In this document: one piece after another, positions 32,624-44,559 of the stretch
Numbering within the stretch: position 1 is the stretch's first letter
Layout of the letters: the number at the start of each line of letters is the position of its first letter
Source: Paludibacter jiangxiensis
Lineage (GTDB): Bacteria; Bacteroidota; Bacteroidia; Bacteroidales; Paludibacteraceae
Reading direction: 5' to 3'
Length of the DNA: 44,714 nt
Assembly (NCBI GenBank): GCA_945897785.1
Contig: CAMDGD010000011.1
Location: 1 to 44,714, forward strand
The notes under the pieces: model-generated
The model's database searches: none
The model's input: only the letters and a program-made list of their open reading frames with translations
Told to the model about the DNA's origin: nothing
Program-made: the position numbers and the translations under genes

Positions 32624-32684
32624 TTGCACACATTGTCAAGCCGCACATGCCGACACACAAACCAAAGCTTGCCAAAGAGTGCAA
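32624..32684 (+). repeat. Hairpin repeat A
   Basis: Outer stem TTGCAC/GTGCAA, internal loop ACA/AGA, inner stem TTGTCAAGC/GCTTGCCAA, 25-base loop. It lies 27 bases before the ATG of the large ATPase gene. Confidence 0.85.
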
Positions 32685-32710
32685 TCTTACCAACACTGAA
32701 CTAAAGAATT

Positions 32711-35700
32711 ATGAGTAAGAAAGATTTCATTGACACACTGTATAAGAAGCGTTCAACTTTTATTGACCCAGACCAAGCTGAAATGCTTGCTAATTTGCTT
32801 GATACTGTTTCAAGTGATATATATTCTGAAAGTCAACGATTCATTTTTGAGCTTATTCAAAATGCTGACGATGCTGCATTAACCGACAGCAATGAAATTC
32901 ATTTTGACTTTCATTCCCATTCATTAATTGTGTCACATAAAGGAAAATCTTTTGATGAAGCTGACATTTATGGGATAACAAATGCGGGAAAAGGAACAAA
33001 AGGTTCTGATGCCACAAAAACAGGTTACAAAGGAATAGGGTTTAAATCAGTTTTTGGCAAGTCAAACCGAGTAACTATACTTTCTGATGATTATAGTTTT
33101 AGGTTTGACAGGACCTTAATCAGACAGTCGTTTGATGGTATAAAAATGCCTTGGCAAATTATTCCCATATGGACTGACGCAATTGATTTTCACAATAATA
33201 CTAATAGCAATAGTTTAAAGGATACATTTAATGTTTCCACCATAATTGAACTTGAAAATTCGCTAAGCTTAAAGAATGAATTAAACGATTTATTGAGTAA
33301 TGGTAAAATTCTATTATTTTTAAGGAAGATTACTAAAATTTCTATTTCTATAAACGGGAATTTGGATTACACCATTGAAAAGCTAATTCATAAAATCGAA
33401 GAAAGCTATAACGAGGTCAAACTTCTTAAAAATGATAAAGAATTATCAAGTTGGATTGTTACGACTTTTGACAAAATACCTATAGATGATGAAACGCAAA
33501 TAGCCTTAAAACAGGATGACAAAACACCCGACAAGCTTAAAGAAGCAAAATTTACCGAAATTTCATTTGCAGCTAAAATAGAAAACGGGAAATTAAAAGA
33601 AATTAAGGGCGAAGAAAGTTTAATTTTTACCTATCTTCCAACAAAGGTGTTAGATTTTGAATTTCCCTTTCTCGTAAATGGTAGCTTTTTAACTAATGCA
33701 AGTAGAGAGGGCATTCATGAAGATAGAGTATGGAATCAATGGCTTTTTCAACTTATTGGAGAAAAAATATTTGATTGGTTTGAATCACTATCACATAGTA
33801 AATACAAATTCCAGATTTTACATTTATTGCCAAATAAATTCAACAGTATTTATAACGAATTGAAAATTTCTTTTGACAAGTCCTTTGATGTATACGGCAG
33901 ACATAAATGTTTCATCCCAAATAAATCTTCTCAATTAAAAAAAGCACCCGAGTTACTAATAGATAAAACTGGTTTGTCGGATCAGGATTTTATTCCAACT
34001 GATGCAATAATTGAATATATAAACAGAGAAACTGAAAAAGCATATTCCGTTAGTTCATTTGTGCATCCAAAATTAGAATCAAAACACAAATTAAACAGTT
34101 TAGGTGCATATACATTTGATTTGGAAAATCTGGAAGAATTTTTCATTGACGAAATTTTCAAAACCAATCATCAACCATCTCAAAATTTTTCATTGATTAA
34201 ATACTTTTTTGAAAAGGCTAATAGCTCAAGCAATAAGGAACTCAATGAAAAACTAAAAACCATCCCATTTATATATGCAAAAGGCAAAAAATTAAAAAGC
34301 CCAAAAACGGTTTGCTTTCCATCTATAAATTTTCAAGCAGAATCAGGTGAAAGTTTATCAGTAATACACAGTGACGTTTATCCAAAAATCGAATCAGAGC
34401 CGAATATAAAATCATGGCTTGAATTACTTGGTGTTAAGGAACCATCAGATTTAGCATATATTGAAAACGAACTGATTGGTAATATTGAAACTTGCATTAC
34501 AGATAAGAATTACAAGCAAGTAACACGGTATTTGCTAAATCAGCATAAAAAAGGATTGTTGAGTGAATGGCATTATAGGAAACTACAAGATTTGCCCATT
34601 TATACTACAAAAAAAGAGTTGATTCCAGCTAAACAATGCTATTTATGCGACATCTTAGAACCTTTATTACGCATTGAGAAAATTAACGAAAATGGAAAAT
34701 ATGTTTCAGAATCGTACAAAGAAAGAGGAGACTTAGCAAGTGAATGGAAAACTTTTTTCCTTAAAATTGGAATTTCAGAAAACATTTCAATTCAATCAAT
34801 AACTACCAGCAGACATTACTTAACTTCTACTGGAATCGAGAAAAAGTATTTTGAGGACATGGGTGCAAAAGCCAAAGAAAATCATGGCTATCCTCATTTA
34901 GTTGATTGTTGGAATAATATAGAATTGGATAAAATAAGGTATAGTGAGTTTGCTCATGAATACAGGTTTTCGAAAGAATTCTGGAAGGCTGCATTAACCT
35001 CCATTGAACCTTCATTTATAAAAGATTACGCATTAATGCCATGGGGATATTATGGTAGTAAATGTCGAGTTGATAATTATTTTCAATGGTGTTTAAGTAA
35101 CTCAGAGTTTTTTCCAACGAAAAAGAAAAATTGTCTTAGAGCATCAGAAGTATTTTTAAATAATAGAGAAATCGTTGATCTTGCTGGAAAGTACTTACCA
35201 ATTTTTGATTGTGAAATTATACCTGATGAGGACTGGTTGAAATTTATACCTTTTAAACAGAAACTGGAAATAGACGATTACTTGCAGGTAATTGAAGCAA
35301 TTGGAATTGATACTGAAAAAGATGAAGAATTAAAGAACATTAATAAAAAGAGATTAGGTTTAGTTTATAATAAGCTATCATCTCTAATTCCTAATTTATC
35401 AGCAAAAAAGAAGAACATAATATCTGAATGGGCAGATTGTCATAAGTTACTTTGTGATAATGAAAGTTTTGAAAATGCCCACCATTTAAAATGGGTAAAG
35501 ATTGATGGTTTTACAAACACTTCAGAGCATTTAAAACTTTTATTCATTCCCGAAAATTGTGAAACTAATACAAATGAATTTGAAGAATTATTGGAGTTAT
35601 TCGGGGTTCAGATTATAGATAGTTTTATTCCTGATATTAAAAATAAAGAACCAAATGCAACATTGAAAATTCAACTTCAAGTTGTTTTGCCATTCTTTAC

Positions 35701-36649
35701 CGCTATACTTGAACGTAAGCATTATTTAGACTATTCTGTTGAATTTAAAAGATTATCAACAATCATTGATAATACTGAGTTTTACAACGCCTCAGAAATT
35801 GTTCTTTCATTCAAAAATCAAGATGAAATCATTTTAGGTCCATCATTACACGCTTATTTGGATGATTCGGAATTATCATTTAAAGGAAAATGGACAAGTC
35901 CAATAACTTTATATGCACTTATACCTGAACTATTAAAGCTATTTAAATTATCAGGTCTTTCCGATGAATTAATGCTGTTAATTCAACTTGATGAAAATGA
36001 AATAAAACAATGGCTCGTTGAACAAGGCTATGAGCTTACATATATTCAGGAAAAACCGGAGTATGCTACTGCAATCGAAAAAGTAAAATCATATACAACA
36101 GAAGAAGACATTGAGCAGTCTTTTGATTTAGTTGATAATTCTGATGAAAGGTCAAGAATATCAATTAGTCAAGATGCAAAAGAAAATATTTTTGAAACAT
36201 TGAAAAGAAAGGGATTTAATGTTCCTGATACGTTAGATATTAATTATACAATTGTCAAAGGAATAAAAAATCCTTCTGGACTTCCTATTAAGATAGTTGT
36301 CAAAAGCGGAAAGGCGGGCAAATTATATTTTAATCCAAGCGAGTGGCTTGCTTTAACAGAGGCTGACACACAACTTTTTGTAGTAACACGAGGTAATATT
36401 GTAAGAAACATTACCCTGAATGACCTTTCTGCAATAAATGATACTTTTCATATGAGATTCAATACACAAGCTTTTGCAGTTAATACTAACCTTAAAGCTT
36501 TTGCCAACTTTTTCAGGTATTTACCATATACACATTTTATTTTTGATACTCCAGAAAGCACTTCAGATTATTTACAACAGTTTGGTTTAAATGAAAGAAA
36601 TCCTAGCTCAAAAGAATTATCATCAGACGACAAAAAATTACTTCACTAA
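32711..36649 (+). CDS. Sacsin-like Hsp90-type ATPase (1312 aa), probable defence protein
   Basis: A large cytosolic protein whose N terminus is a GHKL/Hsp90-like ATP-binding domain: FELIQNADDAA (Glu47, Asn51, Asp53-54 of the N box) and GYKGIGFKSVF at 105-115 (G2 box). FLVNGSFLTNASREG follows near 325. This layout is that of sacsin N-terminal-like ATPases. The remaining ~900 residues are mostly helical with no enzyme motif I recognise; the C-terminal ~120 residues look like a compact alpha/beta domain. ATP-driven sensing or scaffolding is the likely role. The stop overlaps the helicase start by one base (TAATG), so the two products are made in coupled fashion. Confidence 0.8.
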   Translation: MSKKDFIDTLYKKRSTFIDPDQAEMLANLLDTVSSDIYSESQRFIFELIQNADDAALTDSNEIHFDFHSHSLIVSHKGKSFDEADIYGITNAGKGTKGSDATKTGYKGIGFKSVFGKSNRVTILSDDYSFRFDRTLIRQSFDGIKMPWQIIPIWTDAIDFHNNTNSNSLKDTFNVSTIIELENSLSLKNELNDLLSNGKILLFLRKITKISISINGNLDYTIEKLIHKIEESYNEVKLLKNDKELSSWIVTTFDKIPIDDETQIALKQDDKTPDKLKEAKFTEISFAAKIENGKLKEIKGEESLIFTYLPTKVLDFEFPFLVNGSFLTNASREGIHEDRVWNQWLFQLIGEKIFDWFESLSHSKYKFQILHLLPNKFNSIYNELKISFDKSFDVYGRHKCFIPNKSSQLKKAPELLIDKTGLSDQDFIPTDAIIEYINRETEKAYSVSSFVHPKLESKHKLNSLGAYTFDLENLEEFFIDEIFKTNHQPSQNFSLIKYFFEKANSSSNKELNEKLKTIPFIYAKGKKLKSPKTVCFPSINFQAESGESLSVIHSDVYPKIESEPNIKSWLELLGVKEPSDLAYIENELIGNIETCITDKNYKQVTRYLLNQHKKGLLSEWHYRKLQDLPIYTTKKELIPAKQCYLCDILEPLLRIEKINENGKYVSESYKERGDLASEWKTFFLKIGISENISIQSITTSRHYLTSTGIEKKYFEDMGAKAKENHGYPHLVDCWNNIELDKIRYSEFAHEYRFSKEFWKAALTSIEPSFIKDYALMPWGYYGSKCRVDNYFQWCLSNSEFFPTKKKNCLRASEVFLNNREIVDLAGKYLPIFDCEIIPDEDWLKFIPFKQKLEIDDYLQVIEAIGIDTEKDEELKNINKKRLGLVYNKLSSLIPNLSAKKKNIISEWADCHKLLCDNESFENAHHLKWVKIDGFTNTSEHLKLLFIPENCETNTNEFEELLELFGVQIIDSFIPDIKNKEPNATLKIQLQVVLPFFTAILERKHYLDYSVEFKRLSTIIDNTEFYNASEIVLSFKNQDEIILGPSLHAYLDDSELSFKGKWTSPITLYALIPELLKLFKLSGLSDELMLLIQLDENEIKQWLVEQGYELTYIQEKPEYATAIEKVKSYTTEEDIEQSFDLVDNSDERSRISISQDAKENIFETLKRKGFNVPDTLDINYTIVKGIKNPSGLPIKIVVKSGKAGKLYFNPSEWLALTEADTQLFVVTRGNIVRNITLNDLSAINDTFHMRFNTQAFAVNTNLKAFANFFRYLPYTHFIFDTPESTSDYLQQFGLNERNPSSKELSSDDKKLLH

Positions 36650-38418
36650 TGATTTACGGAAGACAAGAACATTGGCAGTTTTTAGAAGAAGAGCTTAGGG
36701 CACAAACCGAGGCTTACAAGCAGAAGTTAGATACTTCTGCTATGTTCCTATTACAAGACCGTGAAGAACTTTTTGTTGCTCAATTCTTAAAATTCCAAGA
36801 TGGAGAAATGATATTAAAATTCTCCAATAAGCGTGGGCTGCCAAGACAAGGCGAATATCTTTATTGCTTCACAGTTCAAAAAGAGCTAAGAGATTACAGA
36901 AATTGGGAGAATAAAACATATGGTGATTTAGTTAAAGCAAAAACTAATTATTCGGAAATTGTTTGCATTTGGCAAGCACCTTCAAATGAAAAGGATTTTA
37001 GCATTGCAGGTTTTAGAGGTGTTGAATTAGAGTTTTCAACTCATATTCAAGATACAGAAGGTATGATTTTAATACTTGGTCCCAATAAACCACCATTTGA
37101 ATATATCGCTAATCTCCAAAAAATAGTACAGAATGAGAGCAACGAATCAGTGAATAGAATTCTTGACCAAGATTTTAGTTTTTCTGATTGGACACCTTCA
37201 TTACTTGACAACAAAAAGGATATTTCCTACTTCGTTTTAACGCAATTGGCTCTACAAGACACATTAATTATACAGGGCCCGCCTGGGACAGGTAAAACAT
37301 ATTTAATAGCTGAAATCTGCGAAAAACTATGTCAACAAGGTAAAACCGTTTTAGTAACAGCTTTGACTAATAGAGCATTGATTGAAATAGTTGAGAAGCC
37401 AGCATTACAAAGTCTTTTAGAAGAACATCGGATTTTCAAAACAAAACTTTCTGTTGACGAAGCAAGATCTAATAAAGATTTGCAACAAACAAAAGATGTA
37501 AGCCCACAGCCCGGAAATCTAATTTTATCAACCTTTTACATCATTAGCGGACAAGCAGCACAGACATTTAATGAGCCACCTTTTGACTATGTAATAGTTG
37601 ATGAGGCAAGTCAGGCATTACTTGGAATGTTTGGCGGTGCAAAACTTTTAGGTAAAAAGAATATTTGGATTGGTGACACTAAACAATTACCACCTGTGGT
37701 TGCATTAAGTGACGACAAAGTAAATCGAAAAAACTATGGAGCATTAGTTGACGGACTTAAAGCCCTTTCCGATAACGCTTCAATGCCCATATTTCAATTG
37801 ACTGAAACGCATCGTCTTACTGATAGGGCAGCAAGTTATACCAGTCTTTTTTACAAAGGCAGTTTAAATTCAAGAGCAAAGAAGGACATCCGACTTTCGT
37901 TTAGTGAAACAGCATTTGACATTAGAAAGTATTTTAATCCGCAAGGAGGCCCGACACTTATTAAAACTGACTTAAAAGTAGGTGATTTTAAGCCAAAACA
38001 AGCGTTGAAATTAGCAACAGAATTAGTAATGCACCTTTTATCTACAAATGAAAAATTGCATATTTCTGTTCTGACTTATTTTATTGAAACAACAAAATCG
38101 CTTCAAAAAAGTATTTTTCAAACAGTTGGCTATCACAAAAACCTACTGATAGAAACAGTATCAAGAGTTCAAGGTTTAACGACCGATGTTACAATATTTG
38201 TTGTTCCAAATTCTAGCTATCATCGTTCATTAGAAAACAGACTTTTCAACGTGGCAACAAGTCGTTCGAAAAGACATACACTAATTATCGCTGATAAAAA
38301 TATTTTAAACCGTTCACAGGCTGACAATGAAGTTAAGCAATACCTTCAAAAACTTGACAATGAATTTTCATTTTATATTCCAGTTGAACCAGAATTTAAA
38401 ATGTTATCAGATAAATAA
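36649..38418 (+). CDS. UPF1/DNA2-like superfamily 1 helicase
   Basis: A 589-residue SF1 helicase. An N-terminal ~185-residue domain precedes the motor: Walker A GPPGTGKT at 210-217, motif Ia TALTNRAL, motif II VDEAS at 317-321, motif III GDTKQLPP at 342-349, motif IV TETHRL at 385-390, motif V SRVQGLTTDVTIFV, and motif VI NVATSRSKRHTLII. The DEAS box and NVATSR are typical of UPF1-type RNA/DNA helicases. No nuclease domain is visible. It starts on the last base of the ATPase stop and its own stop overlaps the HEPN-like gene in the same way. Confidence 0.9.
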   Translation: MIYGRQEHWQFLEEELRAQTEAYKQKLDTSAMFLLQDREELFVAQFLKFQDGEMILKFSNKRGLPRQGEYLYCFTVQKELRDYRNWENKTYGDLVKAKTNYSEIVCIWQAPSNEKDFSIAGFRGVELEFSTHIQDTEGMILILGPNKPPFEYIANLQKIVQNESNESVNRILDQDFSFSDWTPSLLDNKKDISYFVLTQLALQDTLIIQGPPGTGKTYLIAEICEKLCQQGKTVLVTALTNRALIEIVEKPALQSLLEEHRIFKTKLSVDEARSNKDLQQTKDVSPQPGNLILSTFYIISGQAAQTFNEPPFDYVIVDEASQALLGMFGGAKLLGKKNIWIGDTKQLPPVVALSDDKVNRKNYGALVDGLKALSDNASMPIFQLTETHRLTDRAASYTSLFYKGSLNSRAKKDIRLSFSETAFDIRKYFNPQGGPTLIKTDLKVGDFKPKQALKLATELVMHLLSTNEKLHISVLTYFIETTKSLQKSIFQTVGYHKNLLIETVSRVQGLTTDVTIFVVPNSSYHRSLENRLFNVATSRSKRHTLIIADKNILNRSQADNEVKQYLQKLDNEFSFYIPVEPEFKMLSDK

Positions 38419-39314
38419 TGAGAAGGAAAAATCTATATTATGCCCAACTTGGTAAAGCAATAAAACTAGCTCGAAGCTCAATTTTTGAGTATAAACGTAT
38501 TAGTCTAATATTGCTTGATAATATTGTTGAGAATTTATTGATTACTCAGAATTCAATAAAACTGCATCATTTACTTGTAATGGGTAATTTAGAAAGAACA
38601 GAATACGAAAAAATTATCAGCAGCTTTAATCGTTTTGAGAAAATAATACAGCAATCGGCAAATCTTGAAATAATTACTGTTTCTGAAAAAAACATATTTG
38701 ATTACTGTCACAAAGCAAGGAATAATCTATATCACAATCTTTTTGCTGATACACGAGTTACGGACTTCTGTATCATTTATTATTGTAACTTTTTAGAAAA
38801 TAATTTCAACAATTATATAGAGATTGGTATCACAAGTTATTCAGAAAGTGAATCAAAATCAACAAATGAAATTCTTAAAGTTGAAAAAATAAATAGTTTG
38901 GAGGGAATATTAATAAATATCAAAGAATTTAATAATTCACAGAAAGATTTATCTCAAAAAATACTTGCTGATATAATTGAAGATTACATTTTGCAGATAG
39001 CAGACACAATGGAAAATGAAACCTTTGAGACATATGATATTTTAAATAGTACAGCAAAGGATTTTTATAACGATTATTTTAGGAATACAAAATACAATGG
39101 ATTAAACCCGTCTGGTTTTATCAAACAATGGTACAGTATTAATGAACGAAAAATCGTTGAGATAAAGCATGAGATTGCAGAAATAAGAAATTCAAAAATG
39201 GAGATGGCTTTTGATAAATTTCATACATTAATGCTTAAAACAGAGCCAACTTATATTGGACTAATGTTGTATTATAGCAATGAAGAATATTTAGCAAGTT
39301 TAAACGAAGATTAA
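38418..39314 (+). CDS. Putative HEPN-type ribonuclease, third gene of the operon
   Basis: A 298-residue, mainly helical protein I do not recognise as a whole. Residues 95-108 (DYCHKARNNLYHNL) contain RNNLYH, an exact match to the RNxxxH catalytic motif of HEPN ribonucleases, preceded by a long helix ISLILLDNIVENLL like the first HEPN helix. HEPN RNases are common effectors in toxin-antitoxin and abortive phage defence. The C-terminal half (160-298) is helical and charged. Translation is coupled to the helicase (TAATG). Hairpin B begins 14 bases after the stop. The RNase call rests on one motif plus helical context. Confidence 0.55.
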   Translation: MRRKNLYYAQLGKAIKLARSSIFEYKRISLILLDNIVENLLITQNSIKLHHLLVMGNLERTEYEKIISSFNRFEKIIQQSANLEIITVSEKNIFDYCHKARNNLYHNLFADTRVTDFCIIYYCNFLENNFNNYIEIGITSYSESESKSTNEILKVEKINSLEGILINIKEFNNSQKDLSQKILADIIEDYILQIADTMENETFETYDILNSTAKDFYNDYFRNTKYNGLNPSGFIKQWYSINERKIVEIKHEIAEIRNSKMEMAFDKFHTLMLKTEPTYIGLMLYYSNEEYLASLNED

Positions 39315-39327
39315 AATGCCGACACAC

Positions 39328-39394
39328 AAAGCATACACATTTGCAAGCCGCACAAGCCCTGACACAAACCAAAGCTTGCAAAAGAGTATGCTTT
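39328..39394 (+). repeat. Hairpin repeat B
   Basis: Outer stem AAAGCATAC/GTATGCTTT, internal loop ACA/AGA, inner stem TTTGCAAGC/GCTTGCAAA, 25-base loop closely similar to that of hairpin A. It bounds the three-gene operon on the right. No T tract follows, so it is not a classical terminator. Confidence 0.9.
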
Positions 39395-39743
39395 TCCCAA
39401 CCCTGAGAAAAAACAAAAAATCTCCCCTCACTTTAAAAAATAAAACTTTGCAAACGCACAACCCGGCAGACAACAACGGAATGACAGAACAGACTGAAAA
39501 TATTAAAGGTATGTCGCTTGAAAAGAAAGAAGGCCAGTTGGTAACAAAGGCTATATGCAATAAGGGTTTCAGAGGTATTTCAAGCATTCTGCCCCGCATA
39601 AAATTTCGTATAGGTGGACAGGAAAGTAGCCCGCATTCCCTTACTCCACATAGCCTCAACCGTTACAAGCAAGCTGTAGAAAGAGAGAAACAGCCTAAAC
39701 AAGCGGCAAAAAGAAAGAAAATTGAAGTTGCTCTATGCTCACC
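39395..39743. other. Gene-poor stretch between hairpins B and D
   Basis: An ATG at 39481 opens a frame (MTEQTENIKGMSLEKKEGQL...) that continues past hairpin D to 39828. Its composition is irregular, it spans a repeat, and I recognise no family; it may be a decayed cassette gene. Otherwise nothing is seen. Confidence 0.35.
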
Positions 39744-42014: not shown

Positions 42015-43331
42015 ATGCCTGAAAATCAAAACATAGAGTGGAAAGAAAGTTGGCGAGATGAATACCTAAAATGGATTTGCGGTTTTGCAAATGCCAAAGG
42101 TGGCAGTATTTTTATTGGTAAAAACGATGCGGGTGATGTTGTCGGGCTTAAAGATTCAAAAAAATTACTGGAAGATATTCCCAACAAAGTTAAAAACATA
42201 CTGGGTATTTTAGTTGATGTTAACTTGCATCATACAGTCAAGGGTGAATTTATTGAGATTGTTGTTGAAGCCCAGCCCTTTCCTGTAAATTACAAGGGGC
42301 AATACCATTATCGAAGTGGAAGTACGAAACAAGAACTAACAGGTCTTGCTCTTGATAAGTTTATGTTACAACGAAAAGGAAAACATTGGGATTCGGTTCC
42401 CGTTCCTCATGTTTCCGTTTCCGATTTAAAGCAAGACACATTCAATTTTTTCAAAAAGAAAGCGATTAAGGCTCAGCGTATTGAACCTGATTCTTTAACC
42501 GACACCGATGAACAATTAATTGAGAATCTACAATTAACTGAAAGTCACTATCTAAAAAAAGCAGCAATTCTTTTATTTCATCCGAATCCGGATAAATTTG
42601 TAACAGGTGCCTATATTAAAATTGGATACTTTGAATCGGACATTGATTTAAAGTTCCAAGATGAAGTTCATGGAAATATCTTTGAACAAATTGAGAAAAC
42701 ATCAGACTTGCTTTTTACAAAATACATCAAATCATCTATTAGCTACGATGGATTAAATAGAGTTGAGAAATATGAATATCCAAGAGAAGCTATTCGTGAG
42801 GCTCTTTTAAACGCTGTTTCTCATAAGGATTATTCTAGTGGTGTTCCTATTCAAATAAGCGTTTATAACGACAAACTTATTTTTTGGAATGACGGACATC
42901 TTCCTGAAGACTTGACAATAGAGGATTTGAGTGTAAAACATCCGTCAAGACCGTTTAACCCAGATATTGCAAACGCCCTATTTCGAAGTGGGTATATTGA
43001 ATCATGGGGTCGCGGGACTCTAAAAATGATTAATGAATGTATTCAGTTCGGGATTCCACAACCAAAATATTTTTATGACATGGGTGGTTTCTGGGTTGAA
43101 TTCCGCAAAGATATTTTTACTATAGAATACTTCAAGTCAATTGGTTTGAATGAACGACAAATTCAAGCTATGAAATATGTAAAAGCAAATGGAAAGATCA
43201 CTAATAGTGAATATCAGTCGAATTTTAGTGTAGCAAGAAACACAGCATCAAGAGATTTAATGGAGCTTGTTGAAAAAGGGCTTTTGAAATCATCTGAATC
43301 TAAAGGAGCAGGTTCGTATTACGAACTTTAA
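42015..43331 (+). CDS. AlbA_2/HATPase regulator-like protein, copy 2 (intact)
   Basis: A 438-residue protein of the COG2865-type group often labelled RecG-like or ATP-binding regulator. The AlbA_2/Schlafen-like domain is at 1-125 (NIEWKESWRDEYLKWICGFA, GGSIFIGKND, YHYRSGSTKQEL). An HATPase_c_4 ATP-binding domain follows (REALLNAVSHKDYSSG, IFWNDGHLP, GRGTLKM). The C-terminal winged helix spans about 370-438 (NERQIQAMKYVKANGKITNSEYQ). By family it binds nucleic acid and ATP and may act as transcriptional regulator or in defence islands; the target is unknown. The stop codon begins a set of 11-base repeats. Hairpin C follows 68 bases later. Confidence 0.82.
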   Translation: MPENQNIEWKESWRDEYLKWICGFANAKGGSIFIGKNDAGDVVGLKDSKKLLEDIPNKVKNILGILVDVNLHHTVKGEFIEIVVEAQPFPVNYKGQYHYRSGSTKQELTGLALDKFMLQRKGKHWDSVPVPHVSVSDLKQDTFNFFKKKAIKAQRIEPDSLTDTDEQLIENLQLTESHYLKKAAILLFHPNPDKFVTGAYIKIGYFESDIDLKFQDEVHGNIFEQIEKTSDLLFTKYIKSSISYDGLNRVEKYEYPREAIREALLNAVSHKDYSSGVPIQISVYNDKLIFWNDGHLPEDLTIEDLSVKHPSRPFNPDIANALFRSGYIESWGRGTLKMINECIQFGIPQPKYFYDMGGFWVEFRKDIFTIEYFKSIGLNERQIQAMKYVKANGKITNSEYQSNFSVARNTASRDLMELVEKGLLKSSESKGAGSYYEL

Positions 43332-43794: not shown

Positions 43795-44559
43795 ATGGAA
43801 ATAACTGACAAAAAATATTTAAAAGAATACTCAGAATTAATTGGAAATCAAATAGTCAGCTTAATTTCTAAATTCGACTTTTCTGAACAAATGGGAGGCT
43901 TTGAATATCTTACAAAAGCTTCTGCAGTTTTCTCCTCAAATATTGAAGGAAATAGTATTGATTTAAACTCTTACATGAATTATGAATTAAGTAAAGAGAA
44001 TTTCAAAGTTGGGAAAGAAATTGAAGAAATTGAAAATCTAATCAAAGCATACGAGTTTGCTCAAAATAACAAACTAACAGAATCTAATCTACTTCATTGC
44101 CACAAGGTCTTCGCCGAAACACTATTAATTAAAAGTAAAAGAGGAAAATATAGAACGGAACAAGTTGGTGTTTTTGGCAAATCAGGAATTGCATATTTAG
44201 CTATTGAACCGCAATTTGTTGAGAAGGAAATGAAACTATTTTTTAGTGGTATTTCAAATCTTCTAGAAAGTAAATTAACTGAAGAAGAAGTTTTTTATTT
44301 TGCGTCACTTATTCATCTTCGATTTGCACATATTCATCCATTTAGAGATGGAAACGGAAGAGCTGCAAGACTTTTAGAAAAATGGTTTATTGCACAAATG
44401 CTCGGCAAAAACTTTTGGAAAATACCCTCCGAAGAATTCTACAAAAACAATCAAGCAAAATATTACGAAACAATTAGCCTAGGAGTTAATTTTTATGAAC
44501 TTAATTACGATAAGTGTTTAACGTTCCTTGAAATACTTCCTAACTGTTTGAAAAAATAA
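43795..44559 (+). CDS. fic: Fic domain AMPylase, self-inhibited class II
   Basis: A 254-residue Fic protein. The catalytic loop HPFRDGNGR at 181-189 is complete (His181 base, DGN for phosphate and metal binding). An N-terminal inhibitory helix has SSNIEGN (Ser47, Glu51, Gly52), matching [ST]xxxE[GN], so the Glu finger that blocks ATP is on the same chain: a class II Fic. Such proteins transfer AMP to a target protein; the target is not evident. It has its own promoter and lies between inverted repeats, with the TAA stop inside the right arm. No antitoxin gene is seen, consistent with intramolecular control. Confidence 0.92.
   Translation: MEITDKKYLKEYSELIGNQIVSLISKFDFSEQMGGFEYLTKASAVFSSNIEGNSIDLNSYMNYELSKENFKVGKEIEEIENLIKAYEFAQNNKLTESNLLHCHKVFAETLLIKSKRGKYRTEQVGVFGKSGIAYLAIEPQFVEKEMKLFFSGISNLLESKLTEEEVFYFASLIHLRFAHIHPFRDGNGRAARLLEKWFIAQMLGKNFWKIPSEEFYKNNQAKYYETISLGVNFYELNYDKCLTFLEILPNCLKK

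What the first reader, a model, noticed from the sequence alone, without database searches (positions are those of the whole stretch)
32711..39314. Three-gene ATPase/helicase/HEPN operon, candidate new defence system
A 1312-aa sacsin-like GHKL ATPase, a UPF1-like SF1 helicase and a helical protein with an RNxxxH HEPN motif are joined by two identical TAATG one-base overlaps, implying fixed stoichiometry and one complex. Sacsin itself combines Hsp90-like ATPase modules with a HEPN domain, so the operon looks like a split bacterial counterpart with a nucleic-acid motor added. A plausible model is that the ATPase senses, the helicase handles foreign or stalled nucleic acid, and the HEPN protein cuts RNA. 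I do not recognise this exact trio as a named system.
Basis: partly seen in the sequence, partly recalled or inferred. Interest (0 to 1): 0.85.

Follow-up and report, generated by a model that had tools for sequence, protein, structure and literature searches.

The report
Modular Tiamat-type defence with swappable RNase
Three tightly linked genes look like a bacterial anti-virus system in which a chaperone-like sensor and a helicase stay together while the probable RNA-cutting part is exchanged between bacteria; the sensor belongs to a known defence family, but I found no description of this combination.

Summary
The three genes are real, at the stated coordinates, coupled by two TAATG overlaps. 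Gene 1 matches PADLOC's TmtA, the Tiamat protein (1212.9 bits). Gene 2 is an IGHMBP2/UPF1-type SF1 helicase. Gene 3 carries RNxxxH, but no profile or structure test showed a HEPN fold.

The new result is comparative. Of 27 complete helicase genes (the window's and 26 found by helicase similarity), 25 follow a TmtA-like gene at -14 to +6 nt. What comes after the helicase varies: 14 of 27 carry a fused PIN domain, 3 a separate HEPN-like gene (window, L005, L017), 2 lie in ARMADA-like loci, 8 have nothing recognisable. The HEPN loci sit in one helicase subclade beside PIN-bearing ones. Sensor half, C-terminal domain and PIN domain have separate histories.

Best reading: a modular Tiamat-derived defence system, sensor plus helicase plus exchangeable RNase. 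RNA as target, HEPN activity and phage defence are inferred. The 'split bacterial sacsin' idea is not supported.

The parts
32628..32699 (+). Upstream copy of a 72-nt direct repeat, ending 11 nt before gene 1
   Evidence: 81% identical to 39335-39406; the DNA search of the own genome (86% complete) found only these two copies
32711..36649 (+). Gene 1: TmtA-like (Tiamat) sacsin/Hsp90-type GHKL ATPase, 1312 aa; presumed sensor
   Evidence: PADLOC PDLC03972 TmtA 1212.9 bits over residues 1-1144; SACS 4e-10; P_loop_sacsin 1.5e-22
32768..33787 (+). GHKL ATPase domain, residues 20-359, N-box ELIQNADD
   Evidence: own HMM, motif check
36104..36646 (+). C-terminal domain of gene 1, residues 1132-1312; proposed helicase-docking part
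   Evidence: HMM of this part hits the C-terminus of 19 of 25 helicase-paired TmtA and none of 20 unpaired GHKL proteins; 10 of the 19 were seeds of the model, and some of the 20 are short or cut by a contig end
36649..38418 (+). Gene 2: SF1 helicase of the IGHMBP2/UPF1/DNA2 type, 589 aa
   Evidence: AAA_11 1.1e-20, TIGR00376 4.4e-25 below cut-off; closest solved structures by sequence SMUBP-2, DNA2, UPF1
37276..37299 (+). Walker [10 protein letters not shown]216 invariant in a 10-sequence alignment
38418..39314 (+). Gene 3: 298-aa putative HEPN RNase, standing where a fused PIN domain stands in related loci
   Evidence: fold not confirmed
38718..38735 (+). RNxxxH motif (R101 to H106)
   Evidence: invariant in the 3 known members
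39335..39406 (+). Downstream copy of the 72-nt repeat, containing a strong hairpin
   Evidence: single-strand DNA fold z-score -4.87; related copies behind PIN-type loci L007, L008, L010, L011
39540..39669 (.). attC-like imperfect palindrome (GGTAAC ... GTTAC), near where similarity to L005 ends
   Evidence: by eye; fold, where the window copy has no unusual energy (z 0.18) and L005's has (z -4.19)

Best explanation
The operon is one form of a modular anti-phage system built on a Tiamat-type ATPase and a UPF1/IGHMBP2-like helicase. Shown by comparison: the TmtA-helicase pair is conserved and tightly spaced; the N-terminal sensor part, the C-terminal domain of TmtA and the nuclease part have separate histories; the part after the helicase core is most often a fused PIN domain and here is a separate gene with a HEPN motif. 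Inferred: TmtA, an ATP-driven Hsp90/sacsin-like clamp, recognises a phage product or assembly through its variable N-terminal part; its C-terminal domain docks the helicase; the activated helicase translocates on RNA (or single-stranded nucleic acid) and brings the RNase (PIN, or HEPN as a dimer) to transcripts, blocking phage production or the infected cell.
For: Tiamat match. 25 of 27 complete helicase genes (window plus 26 found by helicase similarity) have a GHKL/TmtA gene directly upstream. Ten of the 25 upstream proteins were scanned against PADLOC and match TmtA models of three clades. PIN_4 matches 3.5e-18 in L007 and 1.3e-20 in L013; PIN in 14 of 27 loci by own HMM. Separate histories: window vs L005 N-part 26%, C-domain 78%, helicase 97%; L007 vs L074 helicase 35%, PIN 84%; L007 vs L016 helicase 65%, PIN 89% (24-29% is what N-parts of different clades give there). 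The HEPN loci with L006 form a 4-row clade (100/99) inside a 10-row group (100/98) in which 5 rows carry PIN. Among 10 chosen proteins, most of them neighbours: DUF4007 and a PAPS reductase domain in L007, HsdR type in L011, HsdM type in L012, Piwi in L074, GmrSD in L051. One copy on an IMG/VR contig. Patchy distribution, own genome included: helicase in 10 of 393 genomes of the order (E to 1e-40), 4 of 315 of the class (E to 1e-60).
Against: HEPN fold unproven: no family or PDB sequence match, AF2 pLDDT 36 and 49, Foldseek best E 1.8, profile comparison negative though of low power. Gene 3 is rare: 3 loci in all; beyond the own genome only weak rows read as chance in 395 class and 395 phylum genomes, none in plasmids, phages or viral contigs; it was not itself searched in genome contigs. 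8 of 27 pairs have no recognisable effector (three within 750 nt of a contig end). L071 has a helicase-PIN gene without a detectable GHKL partner. L007's PIN lacks an acid that the 11 others shown have. Some neighbours are not defence genes: DNA ligase upstream in L008, a molybdopterin-binding oxidoreductase upstream in L006. No experiment.
Confidence: 0.6

Rival explanations
1. Plain Tiamat with passengers: TmtA defends alone, and the helicase and third gene merely travel with it.
For: The PADLOC models that ring for this protein are all TmtA, and Tiamat is recalled as a single-gene system; of 24 fetched TmtA-family neighbourhoods from the class scan only 2 (L074, L076) have this helicase beside it (L093 has a weak helicase hit, 2e-8, in the gene before).
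Against: 25 of 27 helicase genes are paired and lie at -14 to +6 nt; most paired TmtA share a C-terminal domain not found on the unpaired ones.
Confidence: 0.15
2. DNA-targeting system: the SMUBP2/DNA2-like helicase and PIN (FEN-like) act on phage DNA; gene 3 is a regulator.
For: SMUBP-2 and DNA2 are the closest structures by sequence; in L070 and L073, and probably G001, the pair lies in ARMADA-like loci with a MTase and a YprA/DruE-type helicase.
Against: PIN_4 and RNxxxH HEPN proteins are mostly RNases (general knowledge; for HEPN also the abstract of PMC3710099); that one stands where the other does is easiest to explain by a shared RNA substrate.
Confidence: 0.2
3. Toxin-antitoxin-like unit: gene 3 (or PIN) is a toxin held inactive by TmtA and helicase, which act as guard. 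This overlaps in part with the best explanation.
For: Nuclease-like part last in the operon and variable; unit bracketed by repeats.
Against: Two large ATPases (about 1900 aa together) are unusual as antitoxins; PIN is fused to the helicase rather than separable.
Confidence: 0.25
4. Housekeeping RNA surveillance, a bacterial analogue of UPF1-SMG6 decay, without a defence role.
For: UPF1-like helicase plus PIN resembles the parts of nonsense-mediated decay.
Against: Patchy distribution, defence-type neighbours in five loci, a copy on an IMG/VR contig.
Confidence: 0.07

Closest known systems
Tiamat (TmtA), PADLOC PDLC03964-03972
   Same: Gene 1 matches PDLC03972 over residues 1-1144
   Different: Tiamat is recalled as a single-gene system (naming paper not held); here TmtA is coupled to a helicase and a nuclease-like gene, and its last part lies outside the model match
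Mokosh (MkoA)
   Same: Best PADLOC match of the helicase is MkoA, 2.6e-27; the best stretch is in the helicase part
   Different: The match does not extend over the 1112-position model; Mokosh's PLD nuclease (recalled) was not among the 10 window proteins scanned
CoCoNuT Type II/III (CnuH; PMC11090510, passages seen)
   Same: UPF1-like SF1 helicase in a predicted RNA-targeting system
   Different: CoCoNuT is built on a McrB-type GTPase; none in the 10 window proteins scanned
ARMADA Type II (PMC12458937; outline, abstract and section 5 seen)
   Same: G001 has an SNF2-type helicase, an Eco57I-type MTase, TmtA and the first part of the helicase on one contig, and the rest of the helicase, a DruE/YprA-type helicase and a UvrD/GajB-like helicase on another
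   Different: The window has none of these; term searches of the paper's main text found no HSP90, GHKL, sacsin or Tiamat
Eukaryotic sacsin
   Same: SACS-type GHKL ATPase domain
   Different: One SACS stretch only, no J-domain match, no shown relation between gene 3 and sacsin's HEPN
UPF1-SMG6 of nonsense-mediated decay
   Same: SF1 UPF1-type helicase working with a PIN RNase (works-like comparison only)
   Different: Fusion in one chain, different partner ATPase, no evidence that the assembly is of common descent

Membership tests
Tiamat (TmtA) | TmtA model match over most of the protein | tested here: met
   1212.9 bits, residues 1-1144 of 1312, model 1-1129 of 1302
Tiamat (TmtA) | stand-alone single gene (recalled) | tested here: not met
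   coupled to helicase and third gene; pairing in 25 of 27 helicase loci
Tiamat (TmtA) | anti-phage activity | not testable with these tools
   needs plaque assays
UPF1/IGHMBP2-type SF1 helicase | Walker A/B and SF1 helicase domains | tested here: met
UPF1/IGHMBP2-type SF1 helicase | TIGR00376 score over cut-off | tested here: not met
   88.2 bits against 348.9
HEPN RNase | RNxxxH motif | tested here: met
   invariant in the window protein and both homologues; 2.3% of shuffles have it
HEPN RNase | match to a HEPN profile | tested here: not met
   no HEPN family among Pfam rows up to E 10 for residues 1-131 or up to E 1 for the whole; none in PADLOC or NCBIfam up to E 1; hhalign against 5 HEPN_RiboL-PSP proteins 0.1-0.2% (low power)
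HEPN RNase | HEPN helical fold | tested here: inconclusive
   pLDDT 36 and 49; Foldseek best E 1.8, HEPN toxins among the weak rows
Mokosh | MkoA match beyond the helicase part, PLD partner (recalled) | tested here: not met
CoCoNuT | McrB/CnuB GTPase partner | tested here: not met
   no such domain in the 10 window proteins scanned
[quoted passage not shown]
   absent among the 10 window proteins scanned
Sacsin | repeated SACS modules with J and HEPN domains in one chain | tested here: not met
   one SACS stretch only

The most novel reading that the evidence does not exclude
The TmtA-helicase pair is a general bacterial platform for delivering exchangeable RNases: PIN, HEPN, and perhaps in ARMADA-like loci a RelE-type partner (that part had no Pfam match here). 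It would be a prokaryotic counterpart of UPF1-based RNA surveillance turned to antiviral use, with sensor, adaptor and effector all swappable and the unit moved as a repeat-bounded cassette.
Probability: 0.3. Interest if true: 0.82.

Novelty: new variant of a known kind. Interest (0 to 1): 0.62.

Why it matters
Tiamat is catalogued by one protein and, in the passages I could see, without a mechanism. If a subset of Tiamat proteins works with a dedicated helicase and an exchangeable RNase, the missing effector of that subset is named and testable by point mutation. A HEPN-like gene standing where related loci have PIN is a natural experiment pointing to the effector. The arrangement also gives a bacterial setting in which a UPF1-type helicase is fused to a PIN nuclease.

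Tried and rejected
HEPN confirmation: AF2 with 3 rows on the full protein and on residues 1-131 gave low confidence; Foldseek on the second model had best E 1.8; Pfam up to E 10 gave only unrelated weak rows; profile comparison with five HEPN_RiboL-PSP proteins was negative, but of those controls only L104 and L105 found the rest firmly (one search was a first attempt with two wrongly chosen ORFs and is discarded). More homologues of gene 3: none in plasmids, viral contigs (24, 52) or phages. Weak rows in the class scan (2.6e-4 for residues 179-252; 6.4e-4 for residues 21-102 in a frame with three stops) and in the phylum scan (0.002 in a histidine-kinase-like ORF; 0.006 in a frame with two stops) were read as chance; the two were not looked at further. 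Gene 3 was not scanned in genome contigs, whose one scan went to the helicase. PF18739 in 31 genomes gave nothing above cut-off.

Helicase in plasmids and phages: window helicase none in plasmids; the L074 helicase none in plasmids or phages. Repeat as a pattern in viral contigs: 0. RNAalifold on the repeat alignment gave no consensus structure, so the hairpin claim rests on the single fold and on stem changes seen by eye. The repeat scan (65) also gave one isolated hit in L077; its control was one shuffled window. attC nature of the palindrome: z -4.19 in L005, -3.93 in L010, -2.45 in L008, -1.92 in L011, -1.15 in L007, -0.83 in L017, 0.18 in the window; not tested with an attC model.

Rows dropped from the 27: helicase fragments L019/L065 (same contig) and L020; G001, whose helicase is split over two contigs; L114 (31% over 110 residues, not examined). 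Of the 35 genomes, the own one and 24 others were looked at; 10 were not fetched (weak matches or matches only to the end of the model).

Papers: Tiamat's naming paper is not held. PMC3710099, PMC11090510, PMC12839542, PMC10853773, PMC13092281, PMC12629846: passages only; PMC12458937: outline, abstract, section 5 and term searches. Everything else: search listings, most of them capped.
Full report
OBSERVATION. Three ORFs of 1312, 589 and 298 aa lie head to tail at 32711-39314, and both junctions read TAATG. The genome holding the window is a 1.9 Mb, 77-contig assembly judged 86% complete. Loci with the closest helicases come from Bacteroidota records.

GENE BY GENE. Gene 1 matches Pfam SACS (4e-10), NCBIfam P_loop_sacsin (1.5e-22) and, far more strongly, PADLOC TmtA PDLC03972 (1212.9 bits, residues 1-1144). 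TmtA is the Tiamat protein (recalled; PADLOC gives the name TmtA). So the 'unnamed trio' contains a named defence protein. The last 168 residues are outside the model match. Gene 2 is an SF1 helicase nearest by sequence to SMUBP-2/IGHMBP2, DNA2 and UPF1 among solved structures (TIGR00376 4.4e-25 but below cut-off). Gene 3 matches nothing convincing. It has RNNLYH at 101-106; the motif is kept in both homologues, and the first 131 residues are more alike (60%) than the rest (38%) between the window and L017.

COMPARATIVE SURVEY. I searched with the helicase in genome contigs (16 loci), viral contigs (1), 393 genomes of the order (10 with a match, own included) and, with an alignment, 315 of the class (4, own included). 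After setting aside fragments and one split gene there are 27 complete helicase genes: window, L005-L018, L051, L064, L066-L074, L111. A GHKL/TmtA gene lies directly upstream in 25 of 27. L071 has another protein of 1197 aa without a GHKL or Pfam match (PADLOC not run on it), and L111 is cut by its contig end, though the stub carries the TmtA C-terminal domain. In the 26 loci measured, the gap between the upstream gene and the helicase is -14 to +6 nt. Ten of the 25 TmtA-like proteins were scanned against PADLOC; their best models are PDLC03972 (window, L067, L070, L074), PDLC03967 (L005, L006, L013, L014) and PDLC03970 (L010, L016), three of the nine TmtA models that rang.

EFFECTOR POSITION. 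In 14 of 27 loci the helicase continues into a PIN domain (PF13638 3.5e-18 in L007, 1.3e-20 in L013; own HMM for all). In 3 (window, L005, L017) the helicase stops at about 589 aa and the HEPN-motif gene follows. In 2 (L070, L073) the pair lies between a type IIG-like MTase and a DruE/YprA-like helicase (MTases; helicase of L070; that of L073 by its similar start). In 8 (L006, L009, L014, L015, L018, L064, L066, L069) nothing recognisable follows; L006, L009 and L015 are within 750 nt of a contig end, and L064 has an unmatched 157-aa ORF 8 nt after the helicase. In the helicase tree the HEPN loci plus L006 form a 100/99 clade inside a 10-row group with PIN-bearing L007, L008, L010, L011 and L012; deep branches of that tree are long and unsure. 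The simplest history is one replacement of PIN by the HEPN-motif gene; its direction is inferred.

SEPARATE HISTORIES. Identity by part: window vs L005 N-part 26%, C-domain 78%, helicase 97%, with gene 3 94%; window vs L017 61%, 90%, 96%, gene 3 48%; window vs L007 60%, 32%, 85%. Values of 24-29% are the floor of that alignment for N-parts of different clades. PIN against L007: L074 84% with helicase 35%; L072 75% with 31%; L016 89% with 65%; L008 77% with 92%. Among TmtA-family neighbourhoods of the class scan (35 of 395 genomes), 24 besides the window were fetched and 2 have this helicase (L074, L076); L093 has a weak helicase hit in the gene before, and L081 and L084 gave no GHKL hit with my model. 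So pairing is a property of a subset of TmtA. A model of the C-terminal domain hits 19 of 25 paired TmtA and 0 of 20 unpaired GHKL proteins; one unpaired locus (L087) has it on a neighbouring ORF. Ten paired sequences were the model's seeds and some unpaired ones are short or cut, so this is supportive, not independent.

CONTEXT. I scanned 10 chosen proteins, most of them neighbours: DUF4007 and a PAPS reductase domain in L007, HsdR type in L011, HsdM type in L012, GmrSD in L051, Piwi in L074. Against this, the neighbours that matched in L008 and L006 are a DNA ligase and a molybdopterin-binding oxidoreductase. L051 is an IMG/VR contig; of its neighbours only the GmrSD protein was put to a family scan. 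In the window an AlbA_2/HATPase_c_4 protein and a Fic protein lie further downstream.

BOUNDARIES. A 72-nt direct repeat brackets the operon (81% identical); the own-genome search found no other copy. Related copies bracket L005, L017, L066 and also the reverse-transcriptase plus TmtA operon of L092, and lie downstream only in L007, L008, L010, L011, with partial copies in L012 and L016 and one isolated hit in L077. The downstream copy folds strongly as single-stranded DNA (z -4.87). Further on, an attC-like palindrome lies near where similarity between loci ends (by eye; folds, strong only in some loci). The unit looks like a mobile cassette; how it moves is not shown.

MECHANISM. Shown by comparison: conserved pair, variable sensor part, variable nuclease part. 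Inferred from family knowledge: GHKL ATPases of the Hsp90/sacsin kind close around clients on ATP binding; UPF1-type helicases translocate on RNA or ssDNA; PIN_4 and HEPN proteins are mostly RNases. The most economical model is recognition by TmtA, activation of the helicase through the C-terminal domain, and RNA cutting by PIN or HEPN. I give this 0.6. A toxin-guard version, a DNA-directed version, a passenger version and a housekeeping version remain; the odds are not exclusive, since the toxin-guard reading overlaps with the best one.

COMPARISON WITH THE LITERATURE. Searches showed no title or abstract start describing TmtA with this helicase and a PIN or HEPN partner; several lists were capped (for example 20 of 93, 20 of 44), and the library lacks most subscription papers, including the one that named Tiamat, so absence here is weak. 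CoCoNuTs (PMC11090510, passages) pair a UPF1-like helicase with a McrB-type GTPase. ARMADA (PMC12458937, abstract and section 5) resembles the loci around L070, L073 and G001; term searches of its main text found no HSP90, GHKL, sacsin, Tiamat, PIN or HEPN. PMC3710099 (passages) notes HEPN fusions to SF1 helicases and HEPN in eukaryotic sacsin; the passages shown do not describe this trio. PMC12629846 (passages) reports Tiamat as frequent in a Pseudomonas genomic-island hotspot.

VERDICT. A real, conserved, modular assembly; the ATPase is already catalogued as TmtA, the assembly appears undescribed in what I could see. New variant of a known kind.

Noticed in passing
window 32628-32699 and 39335-39406; L005, L017, L066, L092 flanks: Direct repeats with a hairpin bracket this operon and related operons, suggesting a mobile cassette; an attC-like palindrome follows at 39540-39669.
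   Followed up: partly
L092 3117-10206 (- strand): A reverse transcriptase (RVT_1 1.3e-18), a 217-aa ORF and a 1574-aa SACS/GHKL gene lie in a row, bracketed by the same repeat; possible RT-TmtA system.
   Followed up: partly
L070; L073 with L116/L118; G001: L076/L119 and L115/L117: The TmtA-helicase pair sits in ARMADA-like loci. G001 has SNF2 helicase, MTase, TmtA and the start of the helicase at the end of one contig, and the rest of the helicase, a DruE/YprA-type and a UvrD/GajB-like helicase at the start of another; that the contigs join is inferred. The N-terminal part of the last protein had no Pfam match.
   Followed up: partly
L071 332-6270 (- strand): Helicase-PIN gene whose upstream partner (1197 aa) has no GHKL or Pfam match: possibly another sensor type.
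   Followed up: no
L007 4666-6990: PIN domain reads SPVNF where the 11 other PIN domains printed have D at the third place; a probable catalytic acid is lost.
   Followed up: no
L018: Record titled Phycisphaerales, but its helicase groups with those of Bacteroidota records; transfer or a misbinned contig.
   Followed up: no
window 42015-43331 and 43795-44559: AlbA_2/HATPase_c_4 protein and a Fic protein downstream; a similar AlbA-like ORF seems to follow the operon in L013 (by eye).
   Followed up: no
L064 992-1465 (- strand): 157-aa ORF 8 nt after the helicase with no Pfam match: candidate for yet another effector.
   Followed up: no
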